Source of the DNA: Hydrogenothermus marinus
Lineage (GTDB): Bacteria > Aquificota > Aquificia > Aquificales > Hydrogenothermaceae
Assembly (NCBI RefSeq): GCF_003688665.1
Contig: NZ_REFO01000010.1
Span: forward strand, 1-64,000
DNA: 64,000 bases
Reading direction: 5' to 3'
Shown: positions 50,807 through 57,412 of the stretch, in pieces
Numbering within the stretch: position 1 is the first letter of the stretch
How the letters are laid out: each line of letters begins with the position of its first letter
The notes under the pieces: generated by a model
The model's database searches: none
Seen by the model: only the letters and a program-made list of their open reading frames with translations
What the model was told of the DNA's origin: nothing
Made by a program: the position numbers and the translations under genes

Positions 50807-52105
50807 ATGAGAGATGATTTTTTTAAATTTTTTGGCTTAAGAGAAAATCCTTTTAAGTTAACGCCTGATCCTAGATATTATTTTTTGTCTAAAAAACATG
50901 AAGAAGCTATTTATGCTTTGCAATATTTATATCAATCAGAAGAAGGATTTGCAGTAATAATTGGGGAGCCAGGGACAGGAAAAACATTAACAGTTAGAAA
51001 ATTTATAGATGAACTATCACGTAAATCAAAATATCCACAAGAAACAGAAGTTGCATATATTTTATTTCCTAATTTATCACCTGAAGAACTATTTTTAGCA
51101 ATTTTAGAAGATTTAAAATTAAATATTCCAGATAATAATCAAAATATTTCAAAAAATAAACTTTTTTCAATTTTTAGAGATTATTTAATCCAGAAAAAAA
51201 ATGAAGGAAAAAAAGTATTTATAATAATAGATGAAGCTCAAAATCTTCCTATTGAAACCTTAGAAGAATTAAGAATTTTATCTAATTTAGAGACAGAAAA
51301 TGAAAAACTTCTTCAGATATTGCTTTTAGGACAACCGGAACTTGAGAAAAAACTAAATGATCCAAGATTAAGACAGTTAAAACAAAGAATAACCTTATTT
51401 ATAAAGTTAGAACCTTTAAATGAAAAGGAGATTGAAGATTATATAAAATTTAGAATATCAAAAGCTACAGATAAACCTATAGATATTGATAAAAAAGCAG
51501 TTAAGTTAATAGAAAAATATTCAAAAGGAATTCCAAGAATTATAAATCAAATAATGGATAGAGCTTTAATAGCAGCATATATGGAGGAAAAGAGGAAAGT
51601 ATCAATAGAGGAAATTAAGGCTGCTATAAAAAGCTTAAATCTAACTTTAAAGGAAAAAGATTCTAAAATACTTAAAATAACTATTCCTGTATTTTCTTTT
51701 TTTATAATTATTTTTTTAATAGTTGCATATGGTAATAAAGAGATATTTATTGATAAAAATAAATCAAAGATAGAAATATCTGAAAATTCAAAGCAAACAA
51801 AAAATTTACAAAATATACCCCAAGAAAATGAGGAAAAGCAGATAGAAAAAAAATACTACATTCTATATTTATTAGCTACACCAAATATAGAAGAAGCAAA
51901 AGCAAAAAAGACAAAATTTGAAAAAATGCTAAATAGAAAAATTTATTTACTTCAAGTAAAAGATGGAAAATATTATGCATTAGCTTTATTATTTGAAGAT
52001 TTTGAAAAAGCAAAAAAAGAGAAAGAATACATAAAATCTAAACTAAATAAAAAAGATATATTCTTAACAAAGAAAAAATATAGTCCTGTAATATTAGAGT
52101 ACTAA
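50807..52105 (+). CDS. ExeA/MshM-like AAA ATPase with C-terminal SPOR-like domain
   Basis: A 432-residue bitopic ATPase. The N-terminus FKFFGLRENPFKLTPDPRYYFLSKKHEEAIYAL is the ExeA/GspA/MshM opening. The P-loop is GEPGTGKT; Walker B is VFIIIDEAQNL; the sensor region includes PRIINQIMDRALIAAYME. A membrane helix lies near residues 284-303, followed by a SPOR-like domain (KKYYILYLLATPNIEEAKAKKTKFEKML...). ExeA proteins help secretins cross peptidoglycan, usually through a PG_binding domain; here SPOR takes that place. Likely works with the MshL-like secretin encoded at 55835-57412. Confidence 0.85.
   Translation: MRDDFFKFFGLRENPFKLTPDPRYYFLSKKHEEAIYALQYLYQSEEGFAVIIGEPGTGKTLTVRKFIDELSRKSKYPQETEVAYILFPNLSPEELFLAILEDLKLNIPDNNQNISKNKLFSIFRDYLIQKKNEGKKVFIIIDEAQNLPIETLEELRILSNLETENEKLLQILLLGQPELEKKLNDPRLRQLKQRITLFIKLEPLNEKEIEDYIKFRISKATDKPIDIDKKAVKLIEKYSKGIPRIINQIMDRALIAAYMEEKRKVSIEEIKAAIKSLNLTLKEKDSKILKITIPVFSFFIIIFLIVAYGNKEIFIDKNKSKIEISENSKQTKNLQNIPQENEEKQIEKKYYILYLLATPNIEEAKAKKTKFEKMLNRKIYLLQVKDGKYYALALLFEDFEKAKKEKEYIKSKLNKKDIFLTKKKYSPVILEY
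52010..52079 (+). repeat. 70-base direct repeat, copy 2
   Basis: Partner of 50699-50768, at the end of the ExeA-like gene. Such identity at third codon positions means a recent duplication or gene conversion between the two SPOR-like domains. Confidence 0.85.
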
Positions 52106-52133: not shown

Positions 52134-52148
52134 GAGGGAAAATCCCTC
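52134..52148 (-). terminator. Terminator of the minus-strand pilus operon
   Basis: GAGGGA, three-base loop, TCCCTC; on the minus strand it is followed by TTTCTTTTATTT. It lies 9 bases after the TAA that closes the orphan cysteine-rich module (52157), so the natural 3' end of the pilin operon is after that module rather than after the present pilin stop. The two converging operons meet here. Confidence 0.7.
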
Positions 52149-52156
52149 ATGTTATA

Positions 52157-52738
52157 TTAACGATCACTTAGTCTACAGGTAGAGCTACCATCATATCCAA
52201 CGTTAACTTTACAATCGTAATCAGTGTCAATACTTGGGTTAAATGATTGATCAAAATGTACTTCACAAAGTTGACGCCTACACCTAGTATCCCCATATCC
52301 ATAAACTGTTCCTGATGAATCTACTAAAATACTCGTTCCACAACCTCCACCACTAAATCCAACTCGCTTTATAGGAGAACGGCGATAAAATCCAGCCCTT
52401 GGACAGAAGACTGTTTCAGTATTATAAGTTCTACACTGACCTTCTGCACAAGAGATATAAACATTACAATCTCCGTCTGTATCTATTGAAGCTAAATCAT
52501 AACTTGCTATTTGAGTACCACTACAACTATTATTATCATATAGAGTGATATTTTCTGGAGGAGCACTAATAGGAGGAATTTCACCTCGTGAGCTTGAAGA
52601 TGTTCTCTGACATGAACCATTAAAGGAAACGCTATCTACATCATTACTAGTAGAATATCCAGATTTAATAAGAACAACATATTAAGAAATACAACTACTA
52701 CTGCCACTTCCACCAGAACCTTCCCGTCTCTTCTTGAA
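52157..52738 (-). pseudogene. Orphan Gly/Ser-linked cysteine-rich C-terminal module of the pilin
   Basis: Downstream of the prepilin stop (TAG TGA) and in the same frame, the minus strand continues with FKKRREGSGGSGSSSCIS, a TAA at 52682-52684, then 174 open codons to TAA 52157-52159. There is no ATG, GTG or TTG start suited to it. The product has 11 cysteines and two related segments, SIDTDGDCNVYIS and SIDTDYDCKVNVG. Its Gly/Ser lead matches the linker before the pilin LamG domain, both ending SSCI-type. G+C is raised (25 of 60 in line 52381-52440). It is best read as a silent, displaced or decayed alternative C-terminus. No function known. Confidence 0.65.
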
Positions 52739-52741
52739 TCA

Positions 52742-54661
52742 CTATGGACAGGACATATTCGGATTGTAAAGTTGTTGAACTTCTGAATCTGTTAAAGCAC
52801 GGTTAAATATACGAACTTGGTCTATTGAACCAAATTTGTTATACCTATTATCAGCTCCCCATCCGAAAATATGGAACTTATCTCCTAATGTAGCATAAGA
52901 GTTAAGAGGTCTTCCTTGTTGTTTAGATAGAGCTTGTGGATTACCATTTATCCATAGTTTATCTGCGGTAACATCTCCTTCGTGGAACTCTGCAACGACA
53001 TGAACCCATCGTGTAGTGCTAAATGGATTCCAGCTTATTCCATATACATCACTATTTGAAGTATTAAAACCAAAAGGTCCTGAGCGAGATGGCAACCACA
53101 AATCATATAAGTAAAATCCAATAGGCATTACACTATTTCTTCCGCTCCATTTTGCCCAAAATGATATTGTAATTATATTTCCTGAATAATTTAAAGGAAT
53201 ATTTATTTTTCCACCTCTTGATTTGGCCGCTTGTCCAAATTTACCTGTCACCCAGCTTACACGACCAGATATAGTCCCATTATAAGTTCCACTTGCGTCA
53301 TTGGCATTTCCATCAAGTTTAAATAATGCTATTTCGCTACCATCACAGAAAAAATCCACATTATTAAAACATCCAGGTATACAGCTACTACCACTGCTAC
53401 CACCACTACTACCACCGCCACTACTACCACCAGACCCACTACCAGAGCCGCCTCCTGCAGTAGAGCAGTCAGGATCATTTACAATTAAAGGAAGTATTTT
53501 TGTATCTGTCCTACTTCCACCACAAGAAGATGCAGTTATAGTTATAGAGCAGGTATCAGCATCACAAGTATTATTTGAATCTGTGCCAATAGTTCCTGTT
53601 ATCTTTCCATCAGATCCAATAGTTAATCCATTTAATAAGTTAGCGTTAGTGCTACAATTTCCTATAGTCCCTGAAAAGGTATAAGTCCCATCTCCACCTG
53701 TAGCATAAACTTGAGCATTATAAGAAGACCCTTGTAAAGTAGAAGGTAAAGAAGTAGTAGTAATTTCAACAGGTATATGTTTCACAGGTATAGTAAAATC
53801 TTTTGATACACTATATCCAGCATCATCTGTTACTGCTACCGTAAATGTAATATCTCCATTTATACATTTATCAAGGGTGCCAGATATAGAGCCATCAGAA
53901 TTTAAAGTTAATCCATGTCCAATACTGCCAGTCCAAGTATAAGGAGGCTTTCCACCTTCAGCCTGAAGTTGATAATTATAGGATTGTCCTTCTGTTGCCT
54001 CTGGCAGAGGATTTTCTGTAATTATATGTAAAGGTTGACAACCTAAAGATGCCTTAGTTTGTAATTCATAAACATTTACCCATTTTACTATATCATCATA
54101 ATCTTCAGGTCTATTCATATCAGATGGGAAATTATCTATATTCTTTGTTCCATAATCATAAACATTTATTGTTGTAGCAGAAGAAACTTTTACTACCCAA
54201 AAAGGTTTAGAAGGTGGTTGTTCTACTATAGAAAGAGAAGAATTACCAGTTTGAATATTATAATTAGCACCACCACTAACAACCAAAAATGCCACATTTT
54301 GTATTTCTTGAAATGAAGAACATGTTGCATCTTTACAAATATGAATAATGATATTTGTGCTATTTACCCCACAAGAATTAGAAGCAGTTTCATCATAAAT
54401 ATATAAAAGTTCTTTTGTATAAGCATCTTTATTTCTTTTTACTGCCTGTAATAATTCATCTGAGTTTGAAGGAAGGCGTTTATGAGTGTTTGCATAACTT
54501 ATTATTCCTTCTACTGCTGCATTTACAATTTCCTTACTTTCTTCATATTTAGCTTTTTTTGTTAATACACTAAAGGTAGTTACACCAATAGATAGTAAAA
54601 TACCTATTATAACTAAAATCATTGCAAGTTCTATTAATGAAAAGCCTTTTATTTTATTCAT
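52742..54661 (-). CDS. Large type IV prepilin with Ig-like and LamG lectin domains
   Basis: A 639-residue pilin-like protein. The prepilin motif is MNKIKG/FSLIELAMILVIIG: cleavage after G6, F7 at mature +1, E11 at +5. A pilin-like head runs to about 205. Two putative Ig-type domains follow (about 212-292, EATEGQSYNYQLQAEGGKPPYTW; about 296-395, TLQGSSYNAQVYATGGDGTYTFSGTIG). A 24-residue Gly/Ser linker (about 403-426) joins a LamG/ConA-like domain (about 438-635; ALFKLDGNANDASG..., SIDQVRIFNRALTDSEVQQLYN). The size suits a minor, tip-located adhesin rather than a shaft pilin. It ends the mshI-N-like operon. The lectin part has higher G+C than its neighbours. Confidence 0.88.
   Translation of the reverse strand: MNKIKGFSLIELAMILVIIGILLSIGVTTFSVLTKKAKYEESKEIVNAAVEGIISYANTHKRLPSNSDELLQAVKRNKDAYTKELLYIYDETASNSCGVNSTNIIIHICKDATCSSFQEIQNVAFLVVSGGANYNIQTGNSSLSIVEQPPSKPFWVVKVSSATTINVYDYGTKNIDNFPSDMNRPEDYDDIVKWVNVYELQTKASLGCQPLHIITENPLPEATEGQSYNYQLQAEGGKPPYTWTGSIGHGLTLNSDGSISGTLDKCINGDITFTVAVTDDAGYSVSKDFTIPVKHIPVEITTTSLPSTLQGSSYNAQVYATGGDGTYTFSGTIGNCSTNANLLNGLTIGSDGKITGTIGTDSNNTCDADTCSITITASSCGGSRTDTKILPLIVNDPDCSTAGGGSGSGSGGSSGGGSSGGSSGSSCIPGCFNNVDFFCDGSEIALFKLDGNANDASGTYNGTISGRVSWVTGKFGQAAKSRGGKINIPLNYSGNIITISFWAKWSGRNSVMPIGFYLYDLWLPSRSGPFGFNTSNSDVYGISWNPFSTTRWVHVVAEFHEGDVTADKLWINGNPQALSKQQGRPLNSYATLGDKFHIFGWGADNRYNKFGSIDQVRIFNRALTDSEVQQLYNPNMSCP
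53384..53455 (-). repeat. Gly/Ser linker tract in the prepilin gene
   Basis: Twenty-four codons of only Gly and Ser (GGT, GGC, AGT, AGC, TCT) between the Ig-like and LamG domains. A shorter related tract starts the orphan module at about 52690-52730 in the same orientation, making the two tracts possible recombination sites. Confidence 0.8.
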
Positions 54662-54710: not shown

Positions 54711-55838
54711 TTATCTAATTCCGTATATCTTTAAAACATTAATCCTATTTTTTACTATCTTTCTTAAATTATCACTTATATCTAAACTTAATATCTCTTT
54801 ATATATATTAACGGCTTTTTCATAATTTCCTTTTATATCTAATATTCTTGCATAAGAGTAAGCTATTAAACTATCATTTGGCCTCATTTTATATGCCTTT
54901 TCATAATAAGTTAAAGCATCTTTTAAATGTCCAGTTTTCTCATAAAATAAACCTTTTAAATATAAACATAAATATTTTTGATTTTTCTGACAATATTTAT
55001 TTAATATTTCTTCTGCTGTAGAAAATTTTTGAAATTTGAGTAAAAGAGCTACTGTTTTTGTAAATATTTTTGGCTTTTCATAAATTTTATATTTACTAAT
55101 TGCTTGCTGTAATTTTTCTATATCTCCATTAACTATTAATAAATATACTAAATTAGAGGCTACTTTATCGTAAAACCTGTTATTTAAAACAAATTCATAT
55201 TCTTTTATTGCTTTTTCTATTTGATTATTTCTTATATAGCTATCAGCCAAATATATATGTTCCCAAAGCTCCGATTCTGTTCTTTCTTTTTTTACTATTG
55301 GTGGAGGGACTGATTGGAAACTCTTAATTAAATCCTGATTTGAGATTTTATTTATATTTTTATTATTAGGTGATATAGGGGGTTTTACAGATAGTTTTTT
55401 ATTGTTTGATATTGATGATTGTTTATTTTCAATTTTTACATTATCTTCTTTTTCAGTTGTTTTTAAGCTTTTATTTTGTTGTAAATCCTCTTTCTTTTCC
55501 ATCTCAAGAGTATTATTAACTTCCTTTGTTTTTATATTATTTTGAATGTTAGTATTATTTTTACTATTATCATTAATTCCTAATGTTTTATATTTTTGGT
55601 AAGTATTATTAGCATTGCTTAAATAAGTTTGCTTTGTTTCTGATTTTAAAAATTCTAATCCTAATAAAGCAAAAATACCTGTAATTACAACTAAACCTGT
55701 TAAAATAAGTAAATTTTTATATTTTTGTAGAAAAATACGATTATCTTCTTTTTTTAAATTAGGAGGTAATACAGTATTTTCATTATTTGCTTTATCTTTT
55801 CTTTTTAATTTTTTTAAAGCTTCTATTATTAAGCTCAT
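54711..55838 (-). CDS. MshN-like TPR protein of the pilus locus
   Basis: A 375-residue bitopic protein: short cytoplasmic start (SLIIEALKKLKRKDKANN, shared by many MshN/GspB-type proteins), one helix at about 39-59 (LILTGLVVITGIFALLGLEFL), a long Asn/Lys-rich linker, then TPR repeats in the last 200 residues (NNQIEKAIKEYEFVL, GHLKDALTYYEKAYKMRPNDSLIAYSYARILDIKGNYEKAVNIYKEIL). It overlaps the secretin gene by 4 bases and precedes the pilin. MshN function is poorly known; a periplasmic assembly role is likely. Confidence 0.78.
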   Translation of the reverse strand: MSLIIEALKKLKRKDKANNENTVLPPNLKKEDNRIFLQKYKNLLILTGLVVITGIFALLGLEFLKSETKQTYLSNANNTYQKYKTLGINDNSKNNTNIQNNIKTKEVNNTLEMEKKEDLQQNKSLKTTEKEDNVKIENKQSSISNNKKLSVKPPISPNNKNINKISNQDLIKSFQSVPPPIVKKERTESELWEHIYLADSYIRNNQIEKAIKEYEFVLNNRFYDKVASNLVYLLIVNGDIEKLQQAISKYKIYEKPKIFTKTVALLLKFQKFSTAEEILNKYCQKNQKYLCLYLKGLFYEKTGHLKDALTYYEKAYKMRPNDSLIAYSYARILDIKGNYEKAVNIYKEILSLDISDNLRKIVKNRINVLKIYGIR

Positions 55839-57412
55839 TCTACACCCTTAATAATGCGAGGTATTAGAAATATTATTAACTCTTTTTTCTGTTTTGATAC
55901 AGATTTTTGTTTAAATAAATTGCCAACATAAGGAATATCTCCAAGTAAAGGTACTTTTTTCTCATCAGTTTGTTTATCAGTACTTATAAGTCCACCTATT
56001 ATTACAGTGTTTCCATCTTCTACTCTTACTACAGTTCCAGCTTCTTTAAGCTCTATTATTGGTGCCTGAGCTACTACCTGATTATTATCTAAAAGCTGTT
56101 TTTCTCCTCTTATTTTTGTTGAAACAGGAATTATATTCAATGTAATAGTTCCATCATCATTTATAAATGGTGAAACTCCTAAAAGGATACCATCTAAAAC
56201 TGAAGATCTTACATAAGTTACTTGCTGTTGAGAAGTTCCTGTTGTAGCTAATGTATTTATCTGTTTTTCCCAGTAAGGTGTTACTGTTCCTGTAGATATA
56301 AGAGCATTTTGGCCATTTAAAACTCTAATCCTTGGACTTGATAATGTCTCAACTTTTCCTGTTTGTGCAAGAGCATTTAATATTGCATTAAAATGAAGTC
56401 CAGTAACTACTAATTGTCCTGCTGAATTAGGTAAAGCTAATGTTTGGCTTAATGTTATAGTTCTGTTATCTCCAAAAGTTTTAGCAAATAAAGCTGACCA
56501 ATCTATTCCATAACTCCAACTATCATTTAGATAAACCTCTACTATTTTTGCTTCAATTAATACCTGTTTTTGCAGTTCTTTTTTTAATTTTTGTAAAAAT
56601 TTTTCAATTCTTTTTATATTCTTAACTTTGTCCGTAACAATTAATGTACCAGTCATTCTATTAAAAGTGTATTTACCATTGTTTGAGAGAAGATTTTTTA
56701 TATTTTCTTCAAACTGACTATAAAAATCACCTAAATCAGTATCTTTTTCATATTTCAAAGAAAAATTTCCTGTTAATGTCCCACCACTACTATATCCTCC
56801 ACCACCATATCCTCCTACACCTCCAACTTGTCTACCAAAACCACCACCTCCACTTGTACCTATACTCCCAAGAACATCTCCTCCTAAATCAACATTATAG
56901 CTTGATAAAGCCTGAATATAAGGGATATAAAATATTTTTGTTTCTGTAGATTTTATATATAGGATATTATTTTTTTCTTTATAACTTATATCTGCTAAAT
57001 CTCTAATTATATCAAGTGCATCTTTTGCAATAACATTATTTAGATTTAAAGTTATCTGCTGGTTTATATCTACATCAGGGGAAACTACAAGATTCATACC
57101 TAAATCATTTGCAATTGAGTATAAAACTTGCTTTAAAGGAGCATTTATAGCATTTATAGTAATTCTTTTTTCTTTTAGAGGATCTATTTTTTCATATCCA
57201 GTAATTAAATCTGTTGGTGAAGGAGGCGGTGGTATATGCTTAGGTTGATTATTTTCATATATATAAGAACTTTGTTGTGAATTGGTTTTAAACTGCTTTT
57301 GCTGATTAATTTCTACAGTTTTAGCAGTATTTTTAGTACTACATCCTGCAAACATAAAAGTTAATATTAAGCTAAATATACCTAAAACCTTTACTTTATA
57401 ATATAAATCCAT
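55835..57412 (-). CDS. MshL-like secretin
   Basis: Outer-membrane secretin of 525 residues, a lipoprotein by its lipobox MFAGC (Cys24). An STN/N0-like domain (RITINAINAPLKQVLYSIANDLGMNLVVSPDVDINQQITLNLNNV) is followed by a Gly-rich loop (about 185-215, GGGGFGRQVGGVGGYGGGGY), an N1 domain (KYTFNRMTGTLIVTDKVKNIKRIEKFL) and the secretin core ending in VRVEDGNTVIIGGLISTDKQTDEKKVPLLGDIPYVGNLFKQKSVSKQKKELIIFLIPRII. It forms the pilus exit channel. The closest layout is MshL/PilQ. Confidence 0.92.
   Translation of the reverse strand: MDLYYKVKVLGIFSLILTFMFAGCSTKNTAKTVEINQQKQFKTNSQQSSYIYENNQPKHIPPPPSPTDLITGYEKIDPLKEKRITINAINAPLKQVLYSIANDLGMNLVVSPDVDINQQITLNLNNVIAKDALDIIRDLADISYKEKNNILYIKSTETKIFYIPYIQALSSYNVDLGGDVLGSIGTSGGGGFGRQVGGVGGYGGGGYSSGGTLTGNFSLKYEKDTDLGDFYSQFEENIKNLLSNNGKYTFNRMTGTLIVTDKVKNIKRIEKFLQKLKKELQKQVLIEAKIVEVYLNDSWSYGIDWSALFAKTFGDNRTITLSQTLALPNSAGQLVVTGLHFNAILNALAQTGKVETLSSPRIRVLNGQNALISTGTVTPYWEKQINTLATTGTSQQQVTYVRSSVLDGILLGVSPFINDDGTITLNIIPVSTKIRGEKQLLDNNQVVAQAPIIELKEAGTVVRVEDGNTVIIGGLISTDKQTDEKKVPLLGDIPYVGNLFKQKSVSKQKKELIIFLIPRIIKGVE

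What the first reader, a model, noticed from the sequence alone, without database searches (positions are those of the whole stretch)
52157..52738. Silent alternative C-terminal module downstream of a lectin pilin
Sequence shows: directly after the prepilin stop, in the same frame and orientation, lies a Gly/Ser-linked, 11-cysteine module of 174 codons with no start codon, closed by its own TAA and then by the operon terminator. Its Gly/Ser lead mirrors the linker in front of the LamG domain. One TAA (52682) breaks the joint. Inference: this is a second, swappable tip domain (compare the PilV shufflon or neisserial silent pilin loci, both established) or the older tip displaced by the LamG module. 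In its present form any linker fusion would hit the TAA, so it may be decaying.
Basis: partly seen in the sequence, partly recalled or inferred. Interest (0 to 1): 0.85.

Follow-up and report, generated by a model that had tools for sequence, protein, structure and literature searches.

The report
Leftover tip of a swapped pilin
Just behind a bacterial pilus-tip gene lies the cut-off end of an older, different tip: the gene was given a new sugar-binding-type tip and the old one was left stranded and silenced, a fossil of how these surface hooks get exchanged.

Summary
On the minus strand, right after the stop (TAG TGA) of a 639-aa modular prepilin, lies an in-frame, startless Gly/Ser lead plus 174 open codons with 11 Cys. 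A TAA separates lead and module; the module has its own TAA and a terminator behind it. In two relatives (one congeneric) the same module is fused, after a Gly/Ser linker, to the C-terminus of the orthologous prepilin. The TAA aligns with a Tyr codon (TAT) that is intact in both. The module is two tandem copies of an otherwise unnamed C-terminal tip domain that ends many of these prepilins. The LamG tip now in front of it is the newcomer: unique among 136 Aquificota genomes, compositionally atypical, and 47% identical to the tip of an unrelated prepilin on an Alkaliphilus plasmid. The stalk is also foreign to its operon: flanking genes group with the genus, the stalk does not (p-AU 2e-6). Best reading: gene or tip replacement stranded the old tip, as in Rhs/CDI C-terminal displacement. 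A switchable cassette is not supported: there is one copy, no start, no recombinase seen in the genes scanned nearby, and simple linker recombination would still hit the TAA.

The parts
52742..54661 (-). Modular prepilin gene (639 aa): N-terminal methylation motif, two Ig-like (He_PIG) domains, Gly/Ser linker, LamG tip; stop TAG
53462..54661 (-). Prepilin stalk; lineage foreign to its operon (nearest stalks G059, G007, not the genus)
53375..53461 (-). Gly/Ser linker in front of the LamG tip
52745..53374 (-). LamG (Laminin_G_3) tip, the newcomer: unique in the phylum, GC3 excess z 3.05, 47% identical to the tip of an Alkaliphilus prepilin
52682..52741 (-). Joint: TGA, FKKRRE, Gly/Ser lead GSGGSGSSS, conserved Cys, IS, and TAA (52684-52682) at the position of a conserved Tyr codon
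52157..52681 (-). Orphan tip module, 174 codons, 11 Cys, no start codon; includes the stop TAA 52159-52157
52460..52621 (-). First copy of the conserved C-terminal tip domain within the orphan module
52184..52336 (-). Second copy of the conserved C-terminal tip domain within the orphan module
52134..52148 (.). Stem-loop with T tails on both strands, between the orphan and the convergent ATPase gene
50807..52105 (+). Convergent ExeA/MshM-type AAA ATPase; native flank, groups with the genus. In L050 (G003) the fused tip ends 5 bases from its orthologue
54711..55838 (-). MshN-like TPR gene upstream in the operon; best matches in the genus
55835..57412 (-). MshL-like secretin gene; groups with the genus (99/98)

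Best explanation
The orphan is the 3' end (linker plus tip) of the former prepilin gene at this locus. The ancestor here, as in G003 and G009, was stalk - Gly/Ser linker - double Cys tip. Recombination brought in a different modular-pilin sequence ending in a LamG tip with its own stop. Its right-hand breakpoint fell at the old Gly/Ser linker, so the old tip was stranded downstream without a start. The stranded piece is not translated and has begun to decay: a one-base nonsense change hit the conserved Tyr codon after the linker. The working pilus now carries the LamG tip, probably an adhesin or lectin. Shown: homology, fused relatives, shared position, mosaic ancestry of stalk versus flanks, atypical LamG, absence of a start. 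Inferred: order of events, breakpoint mechanism, lack of translation, and whether stalk and LamG came together or LamG was added later.
For: Fused homologues at the same locus in L050/L069 (G003, same genus) and L052/L070 (G009). TAA aligned without gaps to TAT in both. In G003 the fused tip ends 5 bases from the convergent ATPase gene, so the orphan sits where an old tip would sit. LamG absent from the other Aquificota except one weak hit. LamG GC3 above all 105 reference chunks, while stalk and orphan are native-like. Nearest LamG found is the C-terminal end of another prepilin, so the TAG after LamG is a natural end. Secretin and ATPase trees put the window in its genus (99/98, 100/99) while the stalk rejects it (p-AU 2.3e-6). 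Similar replacements elsewhere in the family.
Against: One genome only; no strain that still has the ancestral arrangement. The orphan is in frame with LamG (expected 1 in 3 by chance after a replacement). FKKRRE between stop and linker is unexplained. Only two fused relatives are known, at 35% identity, so the ancestral stalk type is not known directly. Tree conflict could in part reflect old alleles rather than recent transfer.
Confidence: 0.83

Rival explanations
1. Silent cassette of a switching system: the Cys tip can be recombined back onto the stalk through the Gly/Ser linkers, as in shufflons, pilS or Rhs/CDI loading.
For: Own Gly/Ser lead mirroring the live linker; same frame and strand; open frame and all conserved Cys kept. 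Tips do change often in this family.
Against: TAA lies downstream of the shared linker, so recombination there gives a tipless pilin. Single copy, no second LamG, only 74% identity over 27 nt between linkers, no recombinase among neighbours scanned. No orphan was seen in the up to 700 bases downstream of the other prepilins read.
Confidence: 0.06
2. Truncated long pilin: the ancestor was stalk-LamG-linker-Cys tip in one frame, and nonsense mutations after LamG cut off the end.
For: Orphan is in frame with LamG; several relatives carry extra domains between linker and the terminal tip domain.
Against: The Alkaliphilus LamG pilin also ends right after LamG. In relatives with extra domains no second Gly/Ser linker precedes the terminal tip. 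Needs two adjacent stops plus a third within 20 codons and none in the next 174. LamG composition differs from the orphan's.
Confidence: 0.09
3. Expressed separate protein or read-through extension of the pilin.
For: Long open frame; rare start codons cannot be excluded by sequence.
Against: No ATG/GTG/TTG in frame, three stops between LamG and module, and no signal peptide of its own in the sequence shown.
Confidence: 0.02

Closest known systems
Rhs / CdiA C-terminal displacement and orphan CT modules (PMC3150448)
   Same: Variable C-terminal module replaced; displaced module left downstream, usually without translation start but with the junction motif; the same module found fused to full-length genes in other bacteria.
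   Different: No toxin or immunity gene; junction is a Gly/Ser linker rather than a VENN or PxxxxDPxGL motif; the orphan has a nonsense codon next to the junction.
Modular type IV pilins such as S. sanguinis PilB and PilC (PMC8179133, PMC9934059)
   Same: Pilin moiety with a grafted C-terminal module; PilC is pilin - Ig fold - ConA-like lectin, the same order as here.
   Different: MSHA-like operon of a diderm thermophile; two He_PIG domains; a stranded second tip. No stranded module was mentioned in the passages I read.
PilV shufflon (R64) and neisserial pilS loci (own knowledge)
   Same: Alternative pilin C-termini encoded silently downstream of one expressed gene.
   Different: No repeats or recombinase found nearby, one copy only, nonsense codon in the silent copy.

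Membership tests
Modular type IV prepilin | N-terminal class III signal/methylation motif with an extra non-pilin C-terminal domain | tested here: met
   N_methyl, He_PIG x2 and Laminin_G_3 in order; N_methyl just below cut-off and over it
Modular type IV prepilin | Incorporated in or at the tip of a pilus | not testable with these tools
   Needs microscopy or pull-down
MSHA-like pilus operon | Secretin, TPR protein, ExeA-type ATPase, MshE-type ATPase with MshEN, GspF protein close together | tested here: met
   assignment as MshL/MshN/MshM is by context
Displaced C-terminal module (Rhs/CDI-like process) | Downstream remnant with junction sequence, lacking a start | tested here: met
Displaced C-terminal module (Rhs/CDI-like process) | Same module fused to a full-length gene in relatives | tested here: met
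Rhs/CDI system itself | Toxin domain, immunity gene, VENN or DPxGL motif | tested here: not met
   No such domain; no such motif or immunity gene seen in the sequence read
Shufflon / invertible or convertible silent cassette | Recombinase or recombination repeats at the cassettes | tested here: not met
   no long repeats; no recombinase in the neighbouring genes scanned
Shufflon / invertible or convertible silent cassette | Switching seen between isolates or within a culture | not testable with these tools
   Single genome; no reads available

The most novel reading that the evidence does not exclude
Gly/Ser linkers act as generic crossover points by which Aquificota exchange pilus tips, and stranded tips such as this one serve as a reservoir: in strains without the TAA the Cys tip could be reloaded onto the stalk, a tip-loading system for type IV pili like orphan loading in CDI.
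Probability: 0.07. Interest if true: 0.8.

Novelty: new variant of a known kind. Interest (0 to 1): 0.47.

Why it matters
Modular pilins are known to be widespread and very diverse, but the passages read give no route by which tips are exchanged. This locus catches one exchange with the old tip still in place, and the surrounding family shows that the prepilin gene is replaced repeatedly within an otherwise vertically inherited operon. It extends the C-terminal displacement idea, described for toxin delivery proteins, to type IV pilus tips, and it points to a conserved, unnamed terminal domain worth characterising.

Tried and rejected
Pfam and PDB searches of the module gave nothing usable (NifU at E 0.006 in one member is probably Cys-driven chance). 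AlphaFold of the module was weak (pLDDT 66, pTM 0.50) and Foldseek found no match at E <= 0.001, so no fold is claimed. An inverted repeat (52205-52221 / 52757-52773) was considered as an inversion site and rejected as a short chance match that would flip rather than swap tips. Viral contigs gave no relative of the module. Own-genome searches for further copies of the module or LamG found none.

Full report
OBSERVATION. The feature lies on the minus strand. The prepilin (54661-52742) ends TAG, directly followed by TGA; then in the same frame come FKKRRE, a Gly/Ser lead GSGGSGSSS, Cys, Ile, Ser, a TAA (52684-52682), and 174 open codons closed by TAA at 52159-52157. No ATG, GTG or TTG is in frame. 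A stem-loop with T-rich tails on both strands follows. All counts in the finding are right; a twelfth conserved Cys sits in the lead.

WHAT IT IS. Pfam and PDB know no relative of the module. Whole-genome searches do: in G003 (same genus; WFXI01000191, a Hydrogenothermaceae MAG) and G009 (same family; JALTUV010000043) it is the C-terminus of the orthologous prepilin, after a Gly/Ser linker, in intact frames of 557 and 537 aa. In G003 the tip ends 5 bases from the convergent ATPase gene, the place where the orphan sits in the window, some 50 bases from the same gene. Identity is 35% to either, against 39% between the two live copies; all eleven Cys positions that both live copies share within the module are kept. 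The TAA aligns without gaps to a TAT Tyr codon in both. A profile made from the C-terminal tip domains of eight other prepilins (83 positions) finds two tandem copies in the orphan. The domain, ending in SDR or similar, closes many of these prepilins in Hydrogenothermaceae and in one neighbouring family.

THE NEWCOMER. The LamG tip has no close match among 136 Aquificota genomes, only a weak partial hit in one. Its synonymous GC is higher than expected (z 3.05, above all 105 reference chunks of 200 codons), while stalk (0.23) and orphan (1.14) are not unusual. The best match in the plasmid collection is on a plasmid of Alkaliphilus sp. B6464 (Bacillota): 47% identity over 172 aa, at the C-terminus of a protein that also starts with a prepilin motif (KAFTIVELIVVILVLG) but has an unrelated stalk, and that ends right after LamG. 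The TAG behind LamG is therefore most likely a natural end.

MOSAIC ANCESTRY. The secretin and ATPase genes on either side put the window in its genus (99/98 and 100/99). The stalk does not: holding it with the genus is rejected at p-AU 2.3e-6, and its nearest stalks are G059, of another family, and G007. This is not a single case. Within the group labelled g7, the secretin tree and stalk tree conflict at p-AU 5e-7 or below for each clade tested, and stalk type changes at least five times on the secretin tree. The prepilin gene is thus repeatedly replaced within an otherwise stable operon. G010 shows another fate: only a 3' tip remnant survives at what looks like the prepilin locus, judged by shared downstream sequence with its congener G017.

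MECHANISM. Most likely: an incoming modular-pilin sequence with a LamG tip and its own stop recombined into the locus, with its right-hand junction at the old Gly/Ser linker, and left the old linker and tip behind. Whether stalk and LamG arrived together, or LamG later (its composition hints at later), is open. FKKRRE may be donor sequence after the LamG stop. With about 5% of substitutions making a stop, 174 codons would stay open with probability 0.28 at 0.05 and 0.08 at 0.1 neutral substitutions per site, so silencing is either fairly recent or, less likely, some constraint remains.

WHY NOT A SWITCH. There is one orphan and one LamG in the genome, no recombinase among the neighbours scanned, only a 27-nt, 74% linker match, and the TAA lies beyond it, so recombination through the linkers would yield a tipless pilin. 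An ancestral single frame (stalk-LamG-linker-Cys) is less likely for the reasons given under rivals.

COMPARISON. The process matches C-terminal displacement in Rhs and CDI, where displaced CT fragments lacking initiation signals but keeping the junction motif lie downstream, and are found fused to full-length genes elsewhere (PMC3150448). It is not a member of those systems. The live protein is a modular pilin in the sense of PMC8179133 and resembles the Ig-lectin pilin PilC (PMC9934059).

LIMITS. One genome, two distant fused relatives, no reads. The structure of the Cys tip is unresolved. MshL/MshN/MshM names rest on context. The species was not identified; the genome is placed by relatives whose records are titled Hydrogenothermaceae.

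Noticed in passing
L106:5585-5869 (G010): Isolated remnant of a prepilin tip domain, with a stop, at what looks like the prepilin locus (downstream sequence shared with congener G017); the rest of the gene is gone.
   Followed up: partly
L113:2743-5934 (G072): Two prepilin genes in tandem with different tips in one operon of a neighbouring family.
   Followed up: no
L118:2251-3621 (Alkaliphilus plasmid pB6464): Prepilin of Bacillota whose LamG tip is 47% identical to the window's, with an unrelated stalk: tips seem to cross phyla.
   Followed up: partly
L119:2027-3482 (Priestia megaterium plasmid): A LamG domain of the same kind sits inside what looks like a flagellin.
   Followed up: no
L039, L040, L041, L042, L043 (G026, G011, G028, G034, G036): Five genomes of group g7 share a large different tip in place of the SDR-type tip, without a Pfam match in the one scanned; the secretin tree rejects them as one clade.
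   Followed up: partly
C-terminal ~88 aa of prepilins in L036, L037, L038, L045, L046, L047, L049: A conserved terminal domain (ending SDR or similar), apparently without a Pfam model, closes many of these prepilins.
   Followed up: partly
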